A DNA stretch of 24,932 nt from a virus: the IMG/VR virus record IMGVR_UViG_3300042556_002125, positions 1 to 24,932 of that record; one strand, written 5' to 3'. A model generated the notes under the pieces. It ran no database searches, had not been told where the DNA came from, and saw only the letters and a program-made list of their open reading frames with translations. Position 1 is the first letter of the stretch; every line of letters begins with the position of its first letter. Below are positions 5 to 24,760 of this stretch, in pieces. A program made the translations under genes and the position numbers.

Positions 5-1027
5 ATGGCGAAAAGCAGCGTCTCTCGCCCGACATCTGGCGCTACGAATGAATCTCAAAGTTTTTCCCTGTCGTGGCGGGCCTTGTCGCCAACGCCGAAC
101 TCAATAACGGTCACGAGGCCAGTGGTTTTTTCGAAGCTTCCAAACTCCACTGCCACATTTACACAACAAGAACAATTTACACAAGCCACAGAAACCACGG
201 GGATTCATTTTAGTTCCAATTCGTTCACGCACGGATCTTTTGTTTCTACTTACGCAATCACAAGCTGGGCAACTATTCCTGCCAAGGTCAGACGATGGAG
301 CGGTTCTGTTGAATACGACGCAACTGTTCCGTCCTACGTTTCCACCACAAGGCAGTCTTCATCATCGCTTCTTTTTACAGTTGATTCAACCAGTTCAACA
401 ACCGGCAGTGTGCCATTTAGGGAAACGGCCTCGCAATATGTAAGCCGAACAATTCAAAGGTCATCGAACGCCGTTGTTTATGGCCCTCCTCTTGTTTCTT
501 GTGTCAGTCAAGGTAGTTTAACAAAAGCGCGCTACTTCACTCAAGGTGCAGTTGTGGGATCGGAAACTGGCGCGTGGATGGCAATAGAAGGTGGCCCTGT
601 TACGGTGCAAACCGCCGTGCAAGCGCCGGGGGGAGTTACGCTTTTTCCATTCACTACTAAAGGCACAACTGTAAGCTCGAACACGCTGAGTTATTCTGTT
701 GAAACGACAACCAGCAGTGCTGTTGTTTCCGTTTCTGGCGAAAGTTGGACGGCGGTTCAAGGCGTGGCGGGGCTGCATCACGGTGGCGGCCCACTGGTGA
801 AAGGGCAAACTTTTACACAAGTAGCCAGCCCCGGTGGCTACAAAGATGCCGTAAGCGGAACAGTTACAAGTTTTAGTGGAGAGGGCTCGATCTGGACAGA
901 ATCGCAAAGCAACCAAATCCGCTCGTGGTATCCGATAGCAGCCATTTCACCACCGGAACTGCGGGAGGACAGACGATCAATCGTTTTTGCTGCTCCAAAA
1001 AATAACAGTCAGATTCCGTCAGCTTGA
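5..1027 (+). CDS. Ser/Thr-rich probable tail or receptor-binding protein
   Basis: I do not recognise a family. The 340-residue product is very rich in Ser, Thr, Val and Gly, with alternating polar and hydrophobic residues that suggest beta structure. There is no signal peptide or membrane segment, and the last ~35 residues are more charged. It is the first of a run of tail-type genes, so a structural or adhesion role is inferred from position and composition. The ATG at 5 follows a TGA at 1-3 by one base, a spacing also seen at 4038-4042, so this start is plausible; the frame is open to the window edge, so a longer protein is not excluded. Its DNA looks more AT-rich than the next gene, which suggests a separate origin by mosaic exchange. 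Confidence 0.55.
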   Translation: MAKSSVSRPTSGATNESQSFSLSWRALSPTPNSITVTRPVVFSKLPNSTATFTQQEQFTQATETTGIHFSSNSFTHGSFVSTYAITSWATIPAKVRRWSGSVEYDATVPSYVSTTRQSSSSLLFTVDSTSSTTGSVPFRETASQYVSRTIQRSSNAVVYGPPLVSCVSQGSLTKARYFTQGAVVGSETGAWMAIEGGPVTVQTAVQAPGGVTLFPFTTKGTTVSSNTLSYSVETTTSSAVVSVSGESWTAVQGVAGLHHGGGPLVKGQTFTQVASPGGYKDAVSGTVTSFSGEGSIWTESQSNQIRSWYPIAAISPPELREDRRSIVFAAPKNNSQIPSA

Positions 1028-1045: not shown

Positions 1046-2059
1046 GTGCTGGCAATCGCTACATACGCTACCAAGAGCTATTTCTACGCTTGGCCGCAGT
1101 TTTTAAGGCGCATCGCCGCCGCAGCCGGGCATCACGCCGAGGCGCATTTCATTCTGGCAACCGACCAGAGTGACGAGGCCAAAGCGGCTATCGAGGCAGC
1201 GCGCCACGAACTGCCCGAAGGTTGGCGCATCCAAGCCATTACCCTGCCGCTCGATGACGGAGGGGCCGAGGGCAAGGACTACCAAGTAGAGGCGCAGATG
1301 CGTATTGCCGCCCTACAGGGGGCCGCGTTTGCCGCTGCGAGAAAGATCCGCGCCTCGATGTTGTGGTCGGCGGAGGCCGACAACCTTGTCCCTGCCGATG
1401 CTTTGCGTGTGGCCGAGTGGACGCTGCAAATGCCGCAGGCGGATGGGTCAAACTTTTACGATGTTGCCGCCGTGACGTATCCGAATGGTTTATTCCTTGG
1501 AGGCAACGGGACGCCCCAGAATCCCATTGCCGAGGACTTCACCGAGAAAGAGCGTAAGCTGCCGCCGCGCCTTGTCCGCGCCTTGGAGGCTTGCCGCGAA
1601 AGGCTGAAGGCCGAGCCGACAAGCGAGAAGGAAGGCAAGCGGTTGGGCCGATTGCATGAGCGGGTAAAGCGATGCGCGCCCGACGGCAATGTCTTTGAGG
1701 TAAACGGCAAACACGGTTGGAGGCGCAGGGGATGGATGGACTTCGCTTACCCCGGAATCGGTCGGGGGGCGCTCGTGCCATCCGATTGGTGCGGCTTGGG
1801 CTGCACGCTTCTTTCGGCCAAGGCGCTCGCTCTGGCCGAGTTCAGTGGCTACGACGGCAAGGGAACGCAAGACTTGTTCCTGTGTTGGCATAGGTGGCAC
1901 TCGGCGGGCTTGCGGATCGCCTGCATCCCTCACACGGCGGCGGATCATGTGAAGCGGGACAAGGAAGGAAAGATCGTCCACTACCGGGCGTATCACGAAA
2001 CGGAGGGCGAATACCGAGGCCACCTCCGCGTTCGCCAACAGGAATGGATGCCATGTTAG
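1046..2059 (+). CDS. Glycosyltransferase-like protein (GT-A type)
   Basis: The 337-residue protein probably transfers a sugar, or descends from such an enzyme. The N-terminus begins with a strand (LAIATYAT) followed by a helix. Residues 108-113 (SAEADN) sit where GT-A enzymes carry their metal-binding DxD-like motif. Residues 246-261 and 268-282 (GYDGKGTQDLFLCWH) resemble the late G-x-G-x-(E/Q)-D block of GT2-type enzymes. There is no signal peptide or membrane segment, so a cytoplasmic or virion location is expected. The start is GTG at 1046, just after a TTGACA element. The end overlaps a sugar-epimerase gene by 7 nt, so the two are probably translated together and act on the same glycan. 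Substrate unknown; family assignment is by motif and moderate. Confidence 0.5.
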   Translation: MLAIATYATKSYFYAWPQFLRRIAAAAGHHAEAHFILATDQSDEAKAAIEAARHELPEGWRIQAITLPLDDGGAEGKDYQVEAQMRIAALQGAAFAAARKIRASMLWSAEADNLVPADALRVAEWTLQMPQADGSNFYDVAAVTYPNGLFLGGNGTPQNPIAEDFTEKERKLPPRLVRALEACRERLKAEPTSEKEGKRLGRLHERVKRCAPDGNVFEVNGKHGWRRRGWMDFAYPGIGRGALVPSDWCGLGCTLLSAKALALAEFSGYDGKGTQDLFLCWHRWHSAGLRIACIPHTAADHVKRDKEGKIVHYRAYHETEGEYRGHLRVRQQEWMPC

Positions 2060-2481
2060 GCGAGCTTCGACCGCTTACGGCCCACCTCGATGAGCGGGGC
2101 AATCTCACCGAAATATTCCGCGCCTCGGATGACGCTCACGGCTTCGGCCAAGCCTACATCACGACTTGCGCGGCGGGGGTGGTGAAAGCCTGGCACCGCC
2201 ACAAGCTGCAAGTGGATCGTTGGTTTTGCGTAGCGGGCGCGGCGAAAGTCGGCATTTGGGACGCCGAGGCCAAGCGGGGCGAGACAGTGATCCTTTCCGC
2301 CGACACGCCGCAGCTACTCATCATCCCCGCAGGGTTGTTTCACGGCTTCACGCCGTGCCACGGCCACGCCTCGGCGGCGATTCTAAACCTTCCTTCCCGC
2401 GAATACGACCCCGCCAATCCCGATGAGGATCGCCGGGGGCCGCTCGCCTTTCCGTTTCGGTGGGCTGTGGAGTCGCGCTGA
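2053..2481 (+). CDS. RmlC-like cupin, dTDP-4-dehydrorhamnose 3,5-epimerase family
   Basis: A 142-residue cupin resembling sugar-nucleotide 3,5-epimerases. The core starts near residue 47 with WHRHKLQVDRW, the typical W-H-x-H...Q-x-D block, and continues with a beta strand ending VGIWD. Residues 86-99 (PQLLIIPAGLFHGF) match the conserved second cupin motif, and residues 118-127 (YDPANPDEDR) match the family's Y..P.NPDE tail. Full RmlC enzymes are about 180 residues, so this is a short form and may be a sugar isomerase of the same fold. I chose ATG at 2053 because AGGA lies 9 nt upstream; the in-frame ATG at 2044 is too close to that site. The overlap with the glycosyltransferase suggests joint work on a phage-borne or host surface sugar. 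Confidence 0.68.
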   Translation: MLGELRPLTAHLDERGNLTEIFRASDDAHGFGQAYITTCAAGVVKAWHRHKLQVDRWFCVAGAAKVGIWDAEAKRGETVILSADTPQLLIIPAGLFHGFTPCHGHASAAILNLPSREYDPANPDEDRRGPLAFPFRWAVESR

Positions 2482-2511: not shown

Positions 2512-3045
2512 ATGCGCGTCTATATCAATCTCGACTCATCCGAATTTGTTGTCTCGCCCGTTTTGACGCAACGGGTCAACACGCTCTATTTCACCCGCCG
2601 CGACACGGTTCCCGTCGAGGTGCAGTTCGTGCGAGGCGGCTCGGTGGTGGAGTTGGGCGCAGGGGCCACAGGGCAGATCGGGATTAAGAAGACGTTCACG
2701 GGCAATTTCCTCGCCAACGATTCCGGGTGGACGAAGACGGGCACAGGCACAACCACCGTTTACACCTTCGATCTTAACCTCAACACGTCCAACATGGACG
2801 CGGAGTTCTCACCGGACGCCACGACCGAGAGCATCACGGCCAAAATCGAGGTCACTTGGTCGGTCAGCGGGACAACCACGACAACGCTGCCGACATCGGC
2901 AGTGGTTTACAACGATGTGATCCGTGGCGGGGAAGGCGTGCCGACCTCAACAGCCGCCGCCTTTGCGCTTCTGCAAGCACCGGGCGGAACAATCTACCGC
3001 GTCTCTGTCGATAACGACGGCATTCTGACAACCGTGCCTAACTAA
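2512..3045 (+). CDS. Probable baseplate/tail protein, BppU-like N-terminus
   Basis: The 177-residue product has no clear family. Residues 27-60 (FTRRDTVPVEVQF...) follow the pattern of phage baseplate proteins of the BppU type, where a charged R-x-D-T precedes beta strands describing a sandwich domain. The middle is rich in Thr and Gly (TKTGTGTTTVYTF), and the C-terminus ends with a short beta-like stretch. The nearby gene at 3675 shows the same early pattern, so the two may share a fold. It follows a TTTGACA element and lies 7 nt from the next gene. A structural role at the tail tip is inferred from this context and from the absence of enzyme motifs. Confidence 0.5.
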   Translation: MRVYINLDSSEFVVSPVLTQRVNTLYFTRRDTVPVEVQFVRGGSVVELGAGATGQIGIKKTFTGNFLANDSGWTKTGTGTTTVYTFDLNLNTSNMDAEFSPDATTESITAKIEVTWSVSGTTTTTLPTSAVVYNDVIRGGEGVPTSTAAAFALLQAPGGTIYRVSVDNDGILTTVPN

Positions 3046-4041: not shown

Positions 4042-7000
4042 ATGGCCGCGTATCACAAAGTCGAAGTGTCGCTGAACACCAACGCGGTCGAGGTGGGCAT
4101 CCCGTCGCCGCAGACGGTGAACGTAGTAGTGCCGACGATCGGCCCTGCGGGGCCAACTGGGGCAACGGGAGCCACGGGCGCAACAGGCGCGACCGGGGCG
4201 CAAGGGCCAGCGGGAACAGGCATTGAGACGCTTACAAGCAAGGGCGACATCCTGTCGCGCAACGACAGCGCGGCAATTCGCGTTGGGATTGGAAGCACAG
4301 GCCAAATCTTAAAAGTTTCGTCTCAGGGGTTGCCGCATTGGGCCAACGAGTCGGGGGCGGTGACCAGCGTGAACGGCGCGACGGGCGCTGTTGTGATTGG
4401 TCAGGGCGACATCGAAGGGATACTTGAATTAAGCGACAGCCTCCAAGACGACATCAGCAGTCTGAACTTGCTTTTACAGTCGCACGGCGAGCGGCACAGG
4501 GCTGGGGGAAGTGACCCCATCTACAATTTAATGGTCAAGGCCGCAGGCGCTGGCGATGCGAACATCAACGGCTACTACTACGCGGCGAACGACGGCGGGC
4601 CAGTGGACTATATTAAAGTTGGGTCAAGCAGGCGCGCGCAAATGGTCTTTGTAAATTCTCGATGGGAATTTCAATACGATAGCGTTGTTTATTATCGCTC
4701 CGAAGTTCGCCAAAGCAGCAGCAAGCCTTGGCTTTCGACAACTTGGACAAATGTTTTGGGCAATTCGCAAATTGACCCCGTGCCAACCGTGACCGAGGCC
4801 AACTTGGCCGAGGTAAACGAAGAAGTTTCGCGGCTTGTGGATTATGCGGGAGCAGCAAAGCTCGGCAGCACTTCGGGGCTTCCTGTTAAAACAGGCACAA
4901 ACGGCGTCATCGAGGCGGGTTCATTTTCTAATGCGGCAGGGACGTTTTGCGAAGGCAACGATGCGCGGTTGAGTGATGCGAGGACGCCAAGCAGCACGTT
5001 GGCCCACGCCGCCAGTCACCAAACTGGGGTTGCCGCCAAATTTAGCGGCCAAGTCGGCGGAATGTCGCAAAACGTAACGATATTTGCCAACAATCTTGGA
5101 ACCACAGGCAACAGCATTACGCTTTCTTTCGACGGCACAGACGACATAGACACAGTTCTCGCAGCTTGGAATGCGGCAAACACCTCAAACACCGCAACAT
5201 TATCCGCTGGAGATGGCACACAAGTTCCCGACAACGCAGAAGAAATTGTCTTATCTGGAGGCATTGCCGCTGGATCGGATGCGCTTGGCAACTTGCGCCT
5301 TTCGTCATTAAACATTAACGGCGGCGAAGTTGAGTTTGGCGGTTCGCTTAACGCCTACAATTTGCCATTCAAGGTTGTTTCGCCTGACATAGCCAACATC
5401 CAAGTCGCGCAACTTCTGGCAAACAATGCGAAGGGTTTTGCGCTTTATGGAACGGGCGCACTTTCTACCGATGGCCCTGTTGTTCAAGCCACACAATACG
5501 AGGTCACAAACAGTGTTAATTGTTACGTCAATCCCTATGGCGGGAATGTTATTGTCGGAGACACAGCGAGCAACGGTGCAAAGTTGCAAGTTGGTGGGAA
5601 TCTGACGCTCAAAGACCTCGACAACGATTTCGCCGCCACCTTCGATGTTCAGTCGCAACTTTCCGATGACGTTACCCTCACGATCCCCGATCAGTCGGGA
5701 ACTCTCGCAGTCGTTACAGACATCCCGACCACCGCAGGAGACGTTGGAGCGGTAGCAGCGGGAGCCATCACCACCTCTGGCCTCACGCAAGCCACCGCAA
5801 GAATTTTAGGAAGGACGACAGCCAGCACAGGCTCCATCGAGGAGATCACAATCGGGGCGGGCTTGAGTCTCTCGGCGGGGGAGTTGTCGGCTACGGGCGC
5901 AGGCGTCACAGACGGCGACAAAGGCGACATCACGGTCAGCGCATCGGGCGCGACATGGACGATTGATTCGGGCGCAGTCGGCACCTCAAAGCTCGGCGGC
6001 GACATCACGACAGCGGGCAAGGCTCTGCTCGATGACGCAGACGCAGCGGCACAGCGCACTACCTTGGGCCTCGCCGCCTCGGCCACGACCGACACGACCA
6101 ACGCCTCAAATATTTCGAGCGGCACCTTGTCCACGGCGCGGATGGGCAGCGGGACGCCTTCGGCCAGTAACTTTTTGCGGGGCGATGGTAGCTGGCAGAC
6201 TGTCGCGGCGGGGGTCGGCGGCGGCACAGGCTCCACCGACAATTCTATTTTGCGGAGTGACGGCACGGGGGGCAGCACGGTGCAGGATTCGGCGCTGGTC
6301 ATTGATGACTACACGGCCTCAACCCAAGGCAACATCACGCTGGCGGCGCGTCTGGTTTCTTTTAGCTGCACGGCCACGGCATCAGATGATTTCGTCACGG
6401 CCACGGGCCACACGTTCGTCAATGGGGATCAAGTTGTCTTCACGGCGCTGACGGGCGGTGCGGGGCTGGCTGCGAACACCCGCTACTTTGTAGTTTCATC
6501 AGCAACCAACCAATTCAAATGCTCCGCAACGTCTGGCGGATCGGCAATCAACATCACCGCGGATGCGACCGCTGGAACGGTGCAGCTTCTGACGGCGATT
6601 GTTCTTAATCCTAACAATGTCGGAGCGCTTATATTCGGGCAAAAGCCAGATGGAACAACCGTTGGTGGTAATGCGCGAGGCTTGCAGGCCATTGATTTAC
6701 AGAGCGGTCGCGGTAACGCAATCCAAGTGGCAAGCGGAGACCAGTCAGTAATTGTCGGAGGATTATCCAACCGCGCATCAAACGCGCAATCAGTGGTGAT
6801 CGGCAGTCAGTTGTCCGTCGCAAGCGGAGCGGGCGCTATCGTTTTGAGCGGATTTTCCAACACGGCCAGCGGCGGAAACGCTGCCATTCTCGGAGGTCAA
6901 TCCAACACCGCCAGCGCAAACCACTCCGCAGTTGCAGCGGCCATTAGCTCCACCGCCTCGGCAGTCAACGCATTTGCTACAGGCGACAGCGCATTGGCCG

Positions 7001-7671
7001 ACCGCCGCAGTATGCACGCAATGACGGGCGGATCATTCGGCGCGCAAGGAGATTCGCAGCACGTTCGGGTCGTTCTTCGCAACAAGTCAACGAGCAACGT
7101 GGCCGTCGAGCTTTTCATCGTCGTCTCTGGCAGCGTTCGCTTCACCATCCCATCAAACAAGGTGATGGCTTGCCTCATCAACGTGCTGGCCGTGACCAGC
7201 GGCGGCGAACACGCAAACCAATATGTCCGCCGTGTGATGATCGGCAACAGGGGTGGCACGACGGCCTTGCGCGGTGCGGTGCAGGATGTCGGCACAGAGG
7301 AACAGGTTTCCGCTGCTGATATTACAGTTACAGCGGATGACACAAACGATTCTCTTAACATTTCTTTCACGGGGCCGACACCTGTGACGGGATGCACAGC
7401 GGAAGCCGATGACGATGTTATCAGCAAAACCGCCCACGGATTTAACAACAACGACGATATTGTTTTCACCTCGCTTACGAGCGGCGCGGGACTGACGGCA
7501 AACACCGTGACCTATTGGGTTATTGATTCCGCTGCTAACACCTTCAAGGTCAGCGCGACTCGCGGCGGAGCGGCGGTCAACATCACTACCGACTACACCG
7601 ACATGACCGCCACTCGCGTCATGCGCGTGACCGCCAGCGTTGATGCCGTCGAGGTCGGTTTTGGAACCTAA
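4042..7671 (+). CDS. Large tail fibre with collagen-like and beta-roll repeats
   Basis: This is the longest protein in the window (1209 residues), probably a trimeric tail fibre that contacts the host. Residues ~34-60 are nine Gly-X-Y triplets (GPAGPTGATGAT...), a collagen-like stalk. A 'GNSITLSFDG...AAWNAAN' block near residue 355 is a small domain common in tail proteins. Around residues 700-760 come T-S-G repeats with FLRGDGSW and ILRSDGTG, typical of fibre shafts. Residues ~900-985 hold short repeats such as GGLSNRAS/SGFSNTAS/GGQSNTAS, like a YadA-type left-handed beta roll. Two similar modules, ~772-853 and ~1114-1194, flank that roll. No chaperone-type autocleavage motif is recognisable. 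The ATG follows the previous stop by one base. Confidence 0.8.
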   Translation: MAAYHKVEVSLNTNAVEVGIPSPQTVNVVVPTIGPAGPTGATGATGATGATGAQGPAGTGIETLTSKGDILSRNDSAAIRVGIGSTGQILKVSSQGLPHWANESGAVTSVNGATGAVVIGQGDIEGILELSDSLQDDISSLNLLLQSHGERHRAGGSDPIYNLMVKAAGAGDANINGYYYAANDGGPVDYIKVGSSRRAQMVFVNSRWEFQYDSVVYYRSEVRQSSSKPWLSTTWTNVLGNSQIDPVPTVTEANLAEVNEEVSRLVDYAGAAKLGSTSGLPVKTGTNGVIEAGSFSNAAGTFCEGNDARLSDARTPSSTLAHAASHQTGVAAKFSGQVGGMSQNVTIFANNLGTTGNSITLSFDGTDDIDTVLAAWNAANTSNTATLSAGDGTQVPDNAEEIVLSGGIAAGSDALGNLRLSSLNINGGEVEFGGSLNAYNLPFKVVSPDIANIQVAQLLANNAKGFALYGTGALSTDGPVVQATQYEVTNSVNCYVNPYGGNVIVGDTASNGAKLQVGGNLTLKDLDNDFAATFDVQSQLSDDVTLTIPDQSGTLAVVTDIPTTAGDVGAVAAGAITTSGLTQATARILGRTTASTGSIEEITIGAGLSLSAGELSATGAGVTDGDKGDITVSASGATWTIDSGAVGTSKLGGDITTAGKALLDDADAAAQRTTLGLAASATTDTTNASNISSGTLSTARMGSGTPSASNFLRGDGSWQTVAAGVGGGTGSTDNSILRSDGTGGSTVQDSALVIDDYTASTQGNITLAARLVSFSCTATASDDFVTATGHTFVNGDQVVFTALTGGAGLAANTRYFVVSSATNQFKCSATSGGSAINITADATAGTVQLLTAIVLNPNNVGALIFGQKPDGTTVGGNARGLQAIDLQSGRGNAIQVASGDQSVIVGGLSNRASNAQSVVIGSQLSVASGAGAIVLSGFSNTASGGNAAILGGQSNTASANHSAVAAAISSTASAVNAFATGDSALADRRSMHAMTGGSFGAQGDSQHVRVVLRNKSTSNVAVELFIVVSGSVRFTIPSNKVMACLINVLAVTSGGEHANQYVRRVMIGNRGGTTALRGAVQDVGTEEQVSAADITVTADDTNDSLNISFTGPTPVTGCTAEADDDVISKTAHGFNNNDDIVFTSLTSGAGLTANTVTYWVIDSAANTFKVSATRGGAAVNITTDYTDMTATRVMRVTASVDAVEVGFGT

Positions 7672-23272: not shown

Positions 23273-24760
23273 GTGGCGGAAATTCAAACGAAATCAAAGC
23301 GCGGTGGAGCGCGCCCCGGAGCAGGCAGGCCACGCAAGCCCAATGCCAAAAATGCAGCCTATGAGGCGGGCGAACTTTATCAGCCGGGCAGGACGTTTAT
23401 CTATATGCCCACGGTGGAGCCGCGCAACGAGCTTACCAACGGCACGCGGGTCAACATCATGCGGAAGGCGCGGTGGCTCTACAACAATGTGGGCCTTGCC
23501 GCCCGCGCCGTCGATGGCGTGGCGCGTTATGTCTGCGGCACGGGCATCATCCCCGCCGCCCGAACCTCGGACGATGCATGGAACAAGCAGGCTGAAGAAC
23601 TGTTTGAGGATTCGGTAGGCCGCGAAGCGTTCGGTTTCGACGCGGGCGGTCAGGTCAATTTCTACGAGGCGCAGAGCTTCATCATCCGCCACGTTGCTAT
23701 CGACGGCGACTTTTTCGGGCAGTTCATCAAAAGCGAGAGCGGGCGCGCTTTGGTTCGGTTCATGGGGGCCGAGCAAGTGGGCAATGCCTCGACACCGCTG
23801 GCGCAAGAGGAATGGCAAGACGGCGTGCGGACTGACCGCTACGGCAGACCGACAGAATACCGCATCCTTGGCAGCGCCGACGCACAGCGTTTCACCGATG
23901 TCTCTGCCGATGACATCCTGCACTTCCGCCGCCCTGTTCGCATTGGCTACACGCGCAGCCCGTCATGGCTGGCCCGCGCTGCGCTTCATCTGCACGACAT
24001 GGCCGATATTGTCAGCTTCACCAAGCAGACGTTTAAATTGGCAAGCCAGCCCGCATTCATCATCGAGTCGCCCGACGCCATGCAAATCGGCATGGGGGCC
24101 GCGCTTAAAAAACAGGATGCCTCCACGGGAAGCGTGACGCTCGACAAGCTCTACTCGCAATCGGGCGTGGTGCAGTTGCCGCCCGGAAGCAAGTTGCAGC
24201 AATTCAAAAACGAGCATCCCGGCAATAACTTCCAGCAGTTCCTCGACTTCCTTGCCCGCGATATTTCTTGGGGCATCGGCGTATCGCCCGAAATGCTTTG
24301 GTCGGTGGCTGGGATCGGCGGGGCCAATACCCGCTATGTGCTGGCCGATGCACAGGTCTTTTTCTCCGAATTGCAGGAATGGCTCATCAATCAGTTTTGC
24401 CGCCGCTTCTGGAAGTATTGGGTCTGGTCGGAGATCCAAGCGGGACGCCTGCCGCTGCGTGACGATTGGTGGAGGGTGGATTTCATTCCGCCCGCCCGCG
24501 CCACGGTGGACTTTGGCCGCGACACCAAGGCGCTCTTGGAGATCGTCCGCACGGGCGCAATGTCCACTCGCCGCTTTGCCGAAATGCACGGGCTGGACGA
24601 AGAGGCCGAAGAAGATGCGGCGATTGCTGCCGCTGTTCGCCGCAAGGAAAAGTGCGAGGCCGCAGGGTTGAGCGTCACGGACGTATTCCCGCCCGCGCCA
24701 GGCTCTCCTATCACCGCGCCTGCGGTTGACACGAGCGAAGTGCCGCCTGCCGACGTTTGA
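23273..24760 (+). CDS. Portal protein, lambda gpB-like family
   Basis: A 495-residue portal that forms the ring through which DNA enters and leaves the head. Typical blocks: VNIMRKARWLYNNVGLAARAVDGVARYVCGTGI (~60-95), FIIRHVAIDGDFFGQF (~135-150), DDILHFRRPVRIGYTRSPSWLARA (~215-238) and GVSPEMLWSVAGIGGANTRY (~335-354), all in lambda portal order. The N-terminus (KRGGARPGAGRPRK, residues 9-22) is an AT-hook-like basic motif more often seen in small terminases. The start is GTG 23273 after a TTTGACA element. Partners are the large terminase (21254), the gpW-like joiner and the prohead protease that follows. Confidence 0.85.
   Translation: MAEIQTKSKRGGARPGAGRPRKPNAKNAAYEAGELYQPGRTFIYMPTVEPRNELTNGTRVNIMRKARWLYNNVGLAARAVDGVARYVCGTGIIPAARTSDDAWNKQAEELFEDSVGREAFGFDAGGQVNFYEAQSFIIRHVAIDGDFFGQFIKSESGRALVRFMGAEQVGNASTPLAQEEWQDGVRTDRYGRPTEYRILGSADAQRFTDVSADDILHFRRPVRIGYTRSPSWLARAALHLHDMADIVSFTKQTFKLASQPAFIIESPDAMQIGMGAALKKQDASTGSVTLDKLYSQSGVVQLPPGSKLQQFKNEHPGNNFQQFLDFLARDISWGIGVSPEMLWSVAGIGGANTRYVLADAQVFFSELQEWLINQFCRRFWKYWVWSEIQAGRLPLRDDWWRVDFIPPARATVDFGRDTKALLEIVRTGAMSTRRFAEMHGLDEEAEEDAAIAAAVRRKEKCEAAGLSVTDVFPPAPGSPITAPAVDTSEVPPADV

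What the first reader, a model, noticed from the sequence alone, without database searches (positions are those of the whole stretch)
1046..2481. Glycosyltransferase and sugar epimerase in the tail module
A GT-A-like transferase and an RmlC-like cupin overlap by 7 nt inside the tail genes. Sugar-modifying pairs are usually in lysogenic conversion or DNA-glycosylation regions. Here they may decorate the tail fibre or the receptor, or change the host's rhamnose-type surface sugar late in infection.
Basis: partly seen in the sequence, partly recalled or inferred. Interest (0 to 1): 0.55.

Follow-up and report, generated by a model that had tools for sequence, protein, structure and literature searches.

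The report
Phage cassette that may glycosylate tails
A phage carries a sugar-transferring enzyme and an optional sugar-making enzyme beside a fast-changing, serine/threonine-rich tail protein, which suggests that it coats its own host-facing part with sugars, much as some bacteria do with their adhesins.

Summary
ORF 1046-2059 (337 aa) models as a GT-A glycosyltransferase and ORF 2053-2481 (142 aa) as an RmlC/FdtA/CapF-type sugar cupin; they overlap by 7 nt among late tail genes. The label "RmlC" is not supported at family level.

In 79 non-redundant related loci the GT always has a Ser/Thr-rich neighbour (S+T 21-39%; other genes average 15%): directly 5' in 70, convergent in 9 of a differently organised lineage. 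In 71 loci scored blind to composition, a neighbour was the most S/T-rich gene in 63 (15.5 expected).

Six same-lineage records without the GT also lack the S/T-rich gene at that site. Between loci the GT is about 86% identical, the partner only about 26%. The cupin is optional: presence/absence changes at least 10 times on the GT tree.

Best reading: a swappable cassette in which a conserved soluble GT O-glycosylates a hypervariable tail protein, accessory enzymes setting the sugar. Glycosylation itself is not shown. New variant of a known kind (phage virion glycosylation), organised like bacterial serine-rich adhesin loci.

The parts
5..1027 (+). 3' part (341 aa readable) of the Ser/Thr-rich hypervariable tail protein gene; the record begins inside it. 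Proposed acceptor.
   Evidence: S+T 0.31; the frame is open to the record's first bases; full-length relatives are about 530-740 aa in the window lineage; C-terminal similarity to L003 (31% over 176 aa, E 2e-17).
1046..2059 (+). GT-A glycosyltransferase, 337 aa, soluble; starts 18 nt after the S/T-rich gene's stop
1373..1381 (+). E110-x-D112, at the end of strand 105-110: the likely metal/nucleotide (DxD-type) motif
   Evidence: Invariant in 37 of 37; strand position from the model. The role is inferred.
1865..1873 (+). T274-Q275-D276, candidate catalytic/acceptor acid
   Evidence: Invariant in 37 of 37. The role is inferred.
1943..1948 (+). D300-H301, candidate C-terminal metal-binding His
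   Evidence: Invariant in 37 of 37. The role is inferred.
2053..2481 (+). RmlC-fold sugar cupin, 142 aa, optional accessory; overlaps the GT by 7 nt
2194..2202 (+). H48-R49-H50 of the cupin: the His pair that aligns with HxHK of QdtA/FdtA
   Evidence: H48 and H50 invariant in 24 of 24; alignment.
2512..3045 (+). Conserved 177-aa late gene that marks the 3' border of the cassette; present in GT-plus and GT-minus relatives

Best explanation
The GT and the S/T-rich gene just 5' of it form a swappable tail cassette; the cupin is an optional accessory. Proposed mechanism: during late expression, in the cytoplasm, the soluble GT transfers a sugar from a nucleotide donor to many Ser/Thr side chains of the S/T-rich tail protein before or during tail assembly. 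The cupin reshapes a 4-keto sugar nucleotide from the host pool, so that the donor (probably a 6-deoxy sugar) differs from phage to phage. Shown: fold class, conserved motifs, constant linkage, joint presence and absence at one site, hypervariable partner, optional cupin. Inferred: enzymatic activity, the acceptor, the donor, that the S/T-rich protein faces the host, and the benefit.
For: 79 of 79 non-redundant GT loci have an adjacent S/T-rich gene (S+T 0.215-0.394, median 0.299). Composition-blind: 63 of 71, 15.5 expected. Background of 599 genes of at least 150 aa: mean 0.154, 95th percentile 0.267. The same linkage in a second architecture, convergent (9 loci), in L116 (GT 42% identical) and in L189. 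Six GT-minus records of the same lineage lack the S/T-rich gene at that site. GT identity median 86% against partner 26% with S/T kept high. Soluble GT-A enzyme with an invariant ExD. Other sugar- or glycan-type genes join the cassette elsewhere (sulfotransferase in L116). Known precedents for both halves: virion glycosylation (passages) and adjacent GTs of a serine-rich adhesin (passages).
Against: No glycan, activity or donor has been measured. S/T-rich sequence also occurs in beta-rich fibres without sugars. Loci share ancestry, so the counts are not independent. 8 of 71 loci have the neighbour at S/T rank 2 or 3. The GT-minus control is small (six records, two of them close relatives). In the convergent lineage the GT is on the opposite strand from the S/T-rich gene, so co-transcription is not universal. 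One search used S/T when choosing the partner. GT model loops 146-163 and 225-248 are of low confidence.
Confidence: 0.62

Rival explanations
1. The GT and cupin change the host's surface polysaccharide, late in infection or in the lysogen (receptor masking, superinfection exclusion, serotype conversion).
For: The phage has an integrase; many phage GTs act on host glycans (PMC12619734, passages); RmlC-type cupins serve O-antigen and capsule pathways, and CapF, RmlT and teichoic-acid GTs are among the structural neighbours.
Against: No transmembrane-like stretch in the GT or cupin. The GT lies within late tail genes, 18 nt after the tail gene in 29 of 36 window-lineage loci, and no promoter-like site is found before it (weak test). 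Presence follows that of a tail protein.
Confidence: 0.17
2. The GT acts on another virion protein, in particular the collagen-like fibre downstream (4042-7671), as COLGALT1 acts on collagen.
For: The best Foldseek match is COLGALT1; the fibre has a short Gly-X-Thr run.
Against: Collagen-like runs of 6 or more triplets occur in 32 of 79 GT-plus loci, 0 of 9 of the convergent lineage and 2 of 6 GT-minus loci (loci are fragments, so this is a weak count). GT-A neighbours of many activities score alike.
Confidence: 0.1
3. The GT modifies phage DNA.
For: DNA glycosylation is a known use of phage GTs (PMC12619734, passages).
Against: No base-modification gene appeared among the window genes searched (not all were searched). 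The linkage is to a tail protein in several genome architectures.
Confidence: 0.04

Closest known systems
Virion glycosylation by mycobacteriophage-encoded GTs (Freeman et al. 2023; seen only through passages of citing papers)
   Same: Phage GT genes, proposed sugar on a virion protein
   Different: There the sugars are reported on capsid and tail-tube subunits (PMC11600133, PMC12619734); in Maravista the GTs lie near the 3' end of the genome (PMC11256854). Here the GT is tied to a hypervariable S/T-rich tail gene, and the modification is only predicted.
Serine-rich repeat adhesin loci (Fap1 with Gtf1/Gtf2 and further GTs; PMC5207161, passages)
   Same: Ser/Thr-rich surface adhesin with dedicated GT genes beside it; the number of GTs varies between loci
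   Different: Bacterial, exported through an accessory Sec system; long serine repeats; initiating enzyme is a two-protein complex. Here one phage GT-A enzyme and a non-repetitive S/T-rich protein.
COLGALT1 (collagen hydroxylysine galactosyltransferase), closest Foldseek match
   Same: GT-A core, 234 residues aligned, Z 17.1, rmsd 3.6 A
   Different: 14% identity; equal or higher Z for hyaluronan synthase and WrtF over 173-211 residues; no sequence match in the PDB.
RmlC / FdtA / CapF-cupin sugar-nucleotide epimerases and ketoisomerases; nearest structure 3ejk (dTDP sugar isomerase)
   Same: Fold, 25% identity to 3ejk over 133 residues, Z 15.5; HxH pair aligned with QdtA/FdtA
   Different: Below RmlC and FdtA family cut-offs; standalone, phage-borne and coupled to a GT.

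Membership tests
GT-A glycosyltransferase (GT2-like) | GT-A fold | tested here: met
   Model pLDDT 78.9; all 50 listed VIA-align rows are nucleotide-sugar GTs with Z 16-18
GT-A glycosyltransferase (GT2-like) | DxD-type acidic motif at the end of a central strand | tested here: met
   E110-x-D112 invariant in 37 of 37, after strand 105-110; metal binding not tested
GT-A glycosyltransferase (GT2-like) | Match to a curated GT2 model | tested here: inconclusive
   PF13641 in 7 of 37 members at E up to 0.1 (best 5.9e-6); none for the window protein
RmlC, dTDP-4-dehydrorhamnose 3,5-epimerase (TIGR01221, PF00908) | Score over the curated cut-off | tested here: not met
   PF00908 23.4 against 27 bits; TIGR01221 11.6 against 155.75
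FdtA/QdtA 3,4-ketoisomerase (PF05523) | Score over the curated cut-off | tested here: not met
   18.9 against 23 bits
FdtA/QdtA 3,4-ketoisomerase (PF05523) | His pair of the HxHK motif (mutated in 2pae, 2pak, 2pam) | tested here: met
   H48 and H50 invariant in 24 of 24 and aligned with HxHK of QdtA and FdtA
PF14667 cupin (named Polysacc_synt_C; CapF-type cupin is my recall) | Score over the curated cut-off | tested here: met
   39 against 28.7 bits, profile positions 1-109 of 111
CapF (NF047837) | Equivalog score and the reductase domain | tested here: not met
   12.1 against 500 bits; 142 aa, cupin part only
Phage virion glycosylation system | Sugar covalently on a virion protein | not testable with these tools
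   Needs mass spectrometry
Serine-rich adhesin glycosylation locus | S/T-rich acceptor gene adjacent to a dedicated GT | tested here: met
   79 of 79 loci; 63 of 71 by composition-blind rank. The acceptor role is inferred
Serine-rich adhesin glycosylation locus | Gtf1/Gtf2 (GtfA/GtfB) initiating pair and accessory Sec genes | not tested
   No dedicated search was made; filed as 'works like', not as a member

The most novel reading that the evidence does not exclude
A mobile phage tail-glycosylation cassette: one conserved, promiscuous GT O-glycosylates tail proteins whose acceptor regions have diverged to near-random similarity, and optional enzymes (cupin, DUF3431 protein, sulfotransferase) are swapped to vary the sugar coat. 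The phage would then have two independent ways, protein sequence and glycan, to change its host-facing surface.
Probability: 0.4. Interest if true: 0.78.

Novelty: new variant of a known kind. Interest (0 to 1): 0.58.

Why it matters
If true, it extends phage virion glycosylation from capsid and tail-tube subunits to a hypervariable, presumably host-facing tail protein, with the acceptor named by genome position. That makes it directly testable: co-express two or three genes and weigh the product. It also offers a compact soluble GT that would have to accept very different Ser/Thr-rich acceptors.

Tried and rejected
Searches that gave nothing: GT against the GenBank phage collection, no match at E up to 1; the cupin there has one weak match, 25.8%; GT against PDB sequences by phmmer and by profile, no related chain; PHROGs for GT, cupin and S/T-rich proteins, nothing significant; NCBIfam, nothing above cut-off. 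The extra genes of L021 and L064 do not resemble the GT by profile comparison; the L064 gene looks GT-like only by eye, so I do not call it one. A profile of the 217-230 aa upstream tail protein was not used for a scan because the family is too variable; the 177-aa gene and the tape measure were used instead.

Considered and rejected: a rhamnose-specific epimerase (cut-offs not met); the collagen-like fibre as main acceptor; GT and cupin as an obligatory pair. The cupin is absent from the whole record in 11 of 11 cupin-less records tested (L002, L004, L007, L011, L012, L014, L015, L029, L035, L036, L044), with both positive controls found; records may be fragments.

Host: three bacterial bins hold the GT (L115 Burkholderiales, L116 Betaproteobacteria, L117 Chthoniobacter flavus), and 2 of 387 genomes of the phylum of L117's genome, one being that genome. 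Binning of phage contigs is unreliable, so the host stays open.

Rows dropped before counting: L001 (the window itself), L082-L105 and L107-L114 were left out, as mostly the same records fetched again; L105 is a different record with a cut GT and was dropped too; L052 has a cut GT and never entered. 94 loci became 79 at 98% GT identity. 8 of these 79 were not scored by the composition-blind gene calling and count only in the 79-of-79 statement, where the partner was chosen partly by S/T. Four GT-less records (L160, L167, L171, L178) carry neither the GT nor the 177-aa gene and stop soon after the tape measure, so they were not counted as controls; L129, L146, L149 and L156 begin or end at the site and were not counted either.

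Full report
Observation. The window is an IMG/VR virus record of 24,932 bases. It carries a GpA-type terminase, a lambda-type portal, a tyrosine integrase, an ERF recombinase and an amidase.

The GT. No Pfam, PHROG or NCBIfam model matches the window protein, but 7 of 37 aligned relatives match PF13641, best E 5.9e-6. AlphaFold2 with 37 relatives gives pLDDT 78.9 with two weak loops. Foldseek and VIA-align return GT-A enzymes. The best Foldseek hit is COLGALT1 (E 2.8e-7); VIA-align gives it Z 17.1 over 234 residues, while hyaluronan synthases and WrtF reach Z 18 over about 173-201 residues. E110, D112, T274-Q275-D276 and D300-H301 are invariant in 37 of 37. There is no transmembrane-like stretch.

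The cupin. It passes PF14667 and fails the RmlC and FdtA cut-offs. The model (pLDDT 76.5, the best of five; the others 46-67) is nearest to 3ejk, then to RmlC, FdtA/QdtA and CapF cupins. H48 and H50 are invariant in 24 of 24 and align with the HxHK of QdtA and FdtA. By inference it changes C3, C4 or C5 of a 4-keto nucleotide sugar; which one is open.

The partner. Relatives showed a constant third element. In the window lineage a gene of about 530-740 aa with S+T about 26-39% ends 18 nt before the GT in 29 of 36 loci. In the L037/L042/L053 lineage, whose genome is laid out differently, the order is cupin-GT and an S/T-rich gene lies convergent on the other strand. Over 79 non-redundant loci the partner is 5' in 70 and convergent in 9; S+T 0.215-0.394, median 0.299; 69 of 79 at or above 0.25. 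Because one search used S/T when choosing among candidates, the unbiased figure is: among 71 loci with neighbours called without regard to composition, a neighbour is the most S/T-rich gene in 63, against 15.5 expected. The eight exceptions (L005, L007, L050, L056, L060, L068, L078, L122) rank second or third. The loci share ancestry, so this is not a p-value.

Natural control. With the downstream 177-aa gene and the tape measure as queries, six records of the same lineage without the GT were found: L133/L180 (one record), L135, L152, L153, L155, L168. In L180, L155, L135 and L168 the stretch between the conserved ~190-230 aa tail gene and the 177-aa gene holds a 222-296 aa protein with S+T 0.16, 0.15, 0.15 and 0.21. 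L152 and L153 hold a homologue of the L168 protein, 49% over 231 aa. None of these replacement proteins has a match in a GT-plus locus, while the ~190-230 aa gene has relatives 5' of the S/T-rich gene in 28 GT-plus loci. So the S/T-rich gene and the GT are present or absent together at one site in the records seen.

Rates. Over 250 random pairs from 36 loci, GT identity has median 86% and the partner 26%, barely above the 23.5% of shuffled sequence, while S/T stays high (by thirds 0.37, 0.31, 0.25). The least variable part of the partner is its C-terminal ~180 aa, detectable even between the two lineages (27.7% over 188 aa, E 2e-6). This is what one expects of a host-facing protein that remains the substrate of one enzyme; host binding is inferred.

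Accessories. On the GT tree (80 rows, quick method) cupin presence/absence needs 10 changes, at least 6 forced by starred branches. Its place varies: directly 3' in 24 loci, 3' after an insert in 4, 5' in 8, none in 43 of the 79. Cupin-less records near the window lack it elsewhere too, 11 of 11 tested. The insert in L021 and L026 is a PF11913 (DUF3431) protein; L116 has a nucleotidyltransferase-type gene and a sulfotransferase. Cassettes thus differ in chemistry around a constant GT-partner core.

Mechanism and literature. I propose O-glycosylation of the S/T-rich tail protein in the cytoplasm during late expression. Precedents: glycosylated capsids and tail tubes of mycobacteriophages (PMC11256854, PMC11600133, PMC12619734: passages only; the primary paper of Freeman et al. 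2023 is not held) and the Fap1 serine-rich adhesin cluster with adjacent GTs (PMC5207161: passages). Ten paper searches (listings only unless passages are named) showed no title or abstract on a phage S/T-rich tail protein with an adjacent GT; subscription papers and preprints are not covered.

Verdict. Confidence 0.62 in tail-protein glycosylation; acceptor, donor and benefit need experiments.

Noticed in passing
   Followed up: no
L021:9028-9705, L026:9008-9709: A PF11913 (DUF3431) protein is inserted between GT and cupin; a similar-sized insert is in L027 and L032. A function for DUF3431 in glycan synthesis would fit.
   Followed up: partly
L116:9769-11126: A nucleotidyltransferase-type gene and a sulfotransferase-family gene follow the most distant tree-placed GT of the viral type.
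   Followed up: partly
L055:9095-10084, L064:9046-10017, L123:9045-10031: 324-330 aa proteins just 3' of the GT with no family match in NCBIfam (all three) or Pfam/PHROGs (L064 only); by eye they may be a second transferase.
   Followed up: partly
window:4042-7671: Long fibre gene with a short collagen-like Gly-X-Thr run near its N-terminus; downstream fibre genes differ strongly between relatives.
   Followed up: partly
window:1-1027: The record is cut inside the S/T-rich gene, so the window lacks that gene's 5' part and the late genes between the portal (23273-24760) and it.
   Followed up: no
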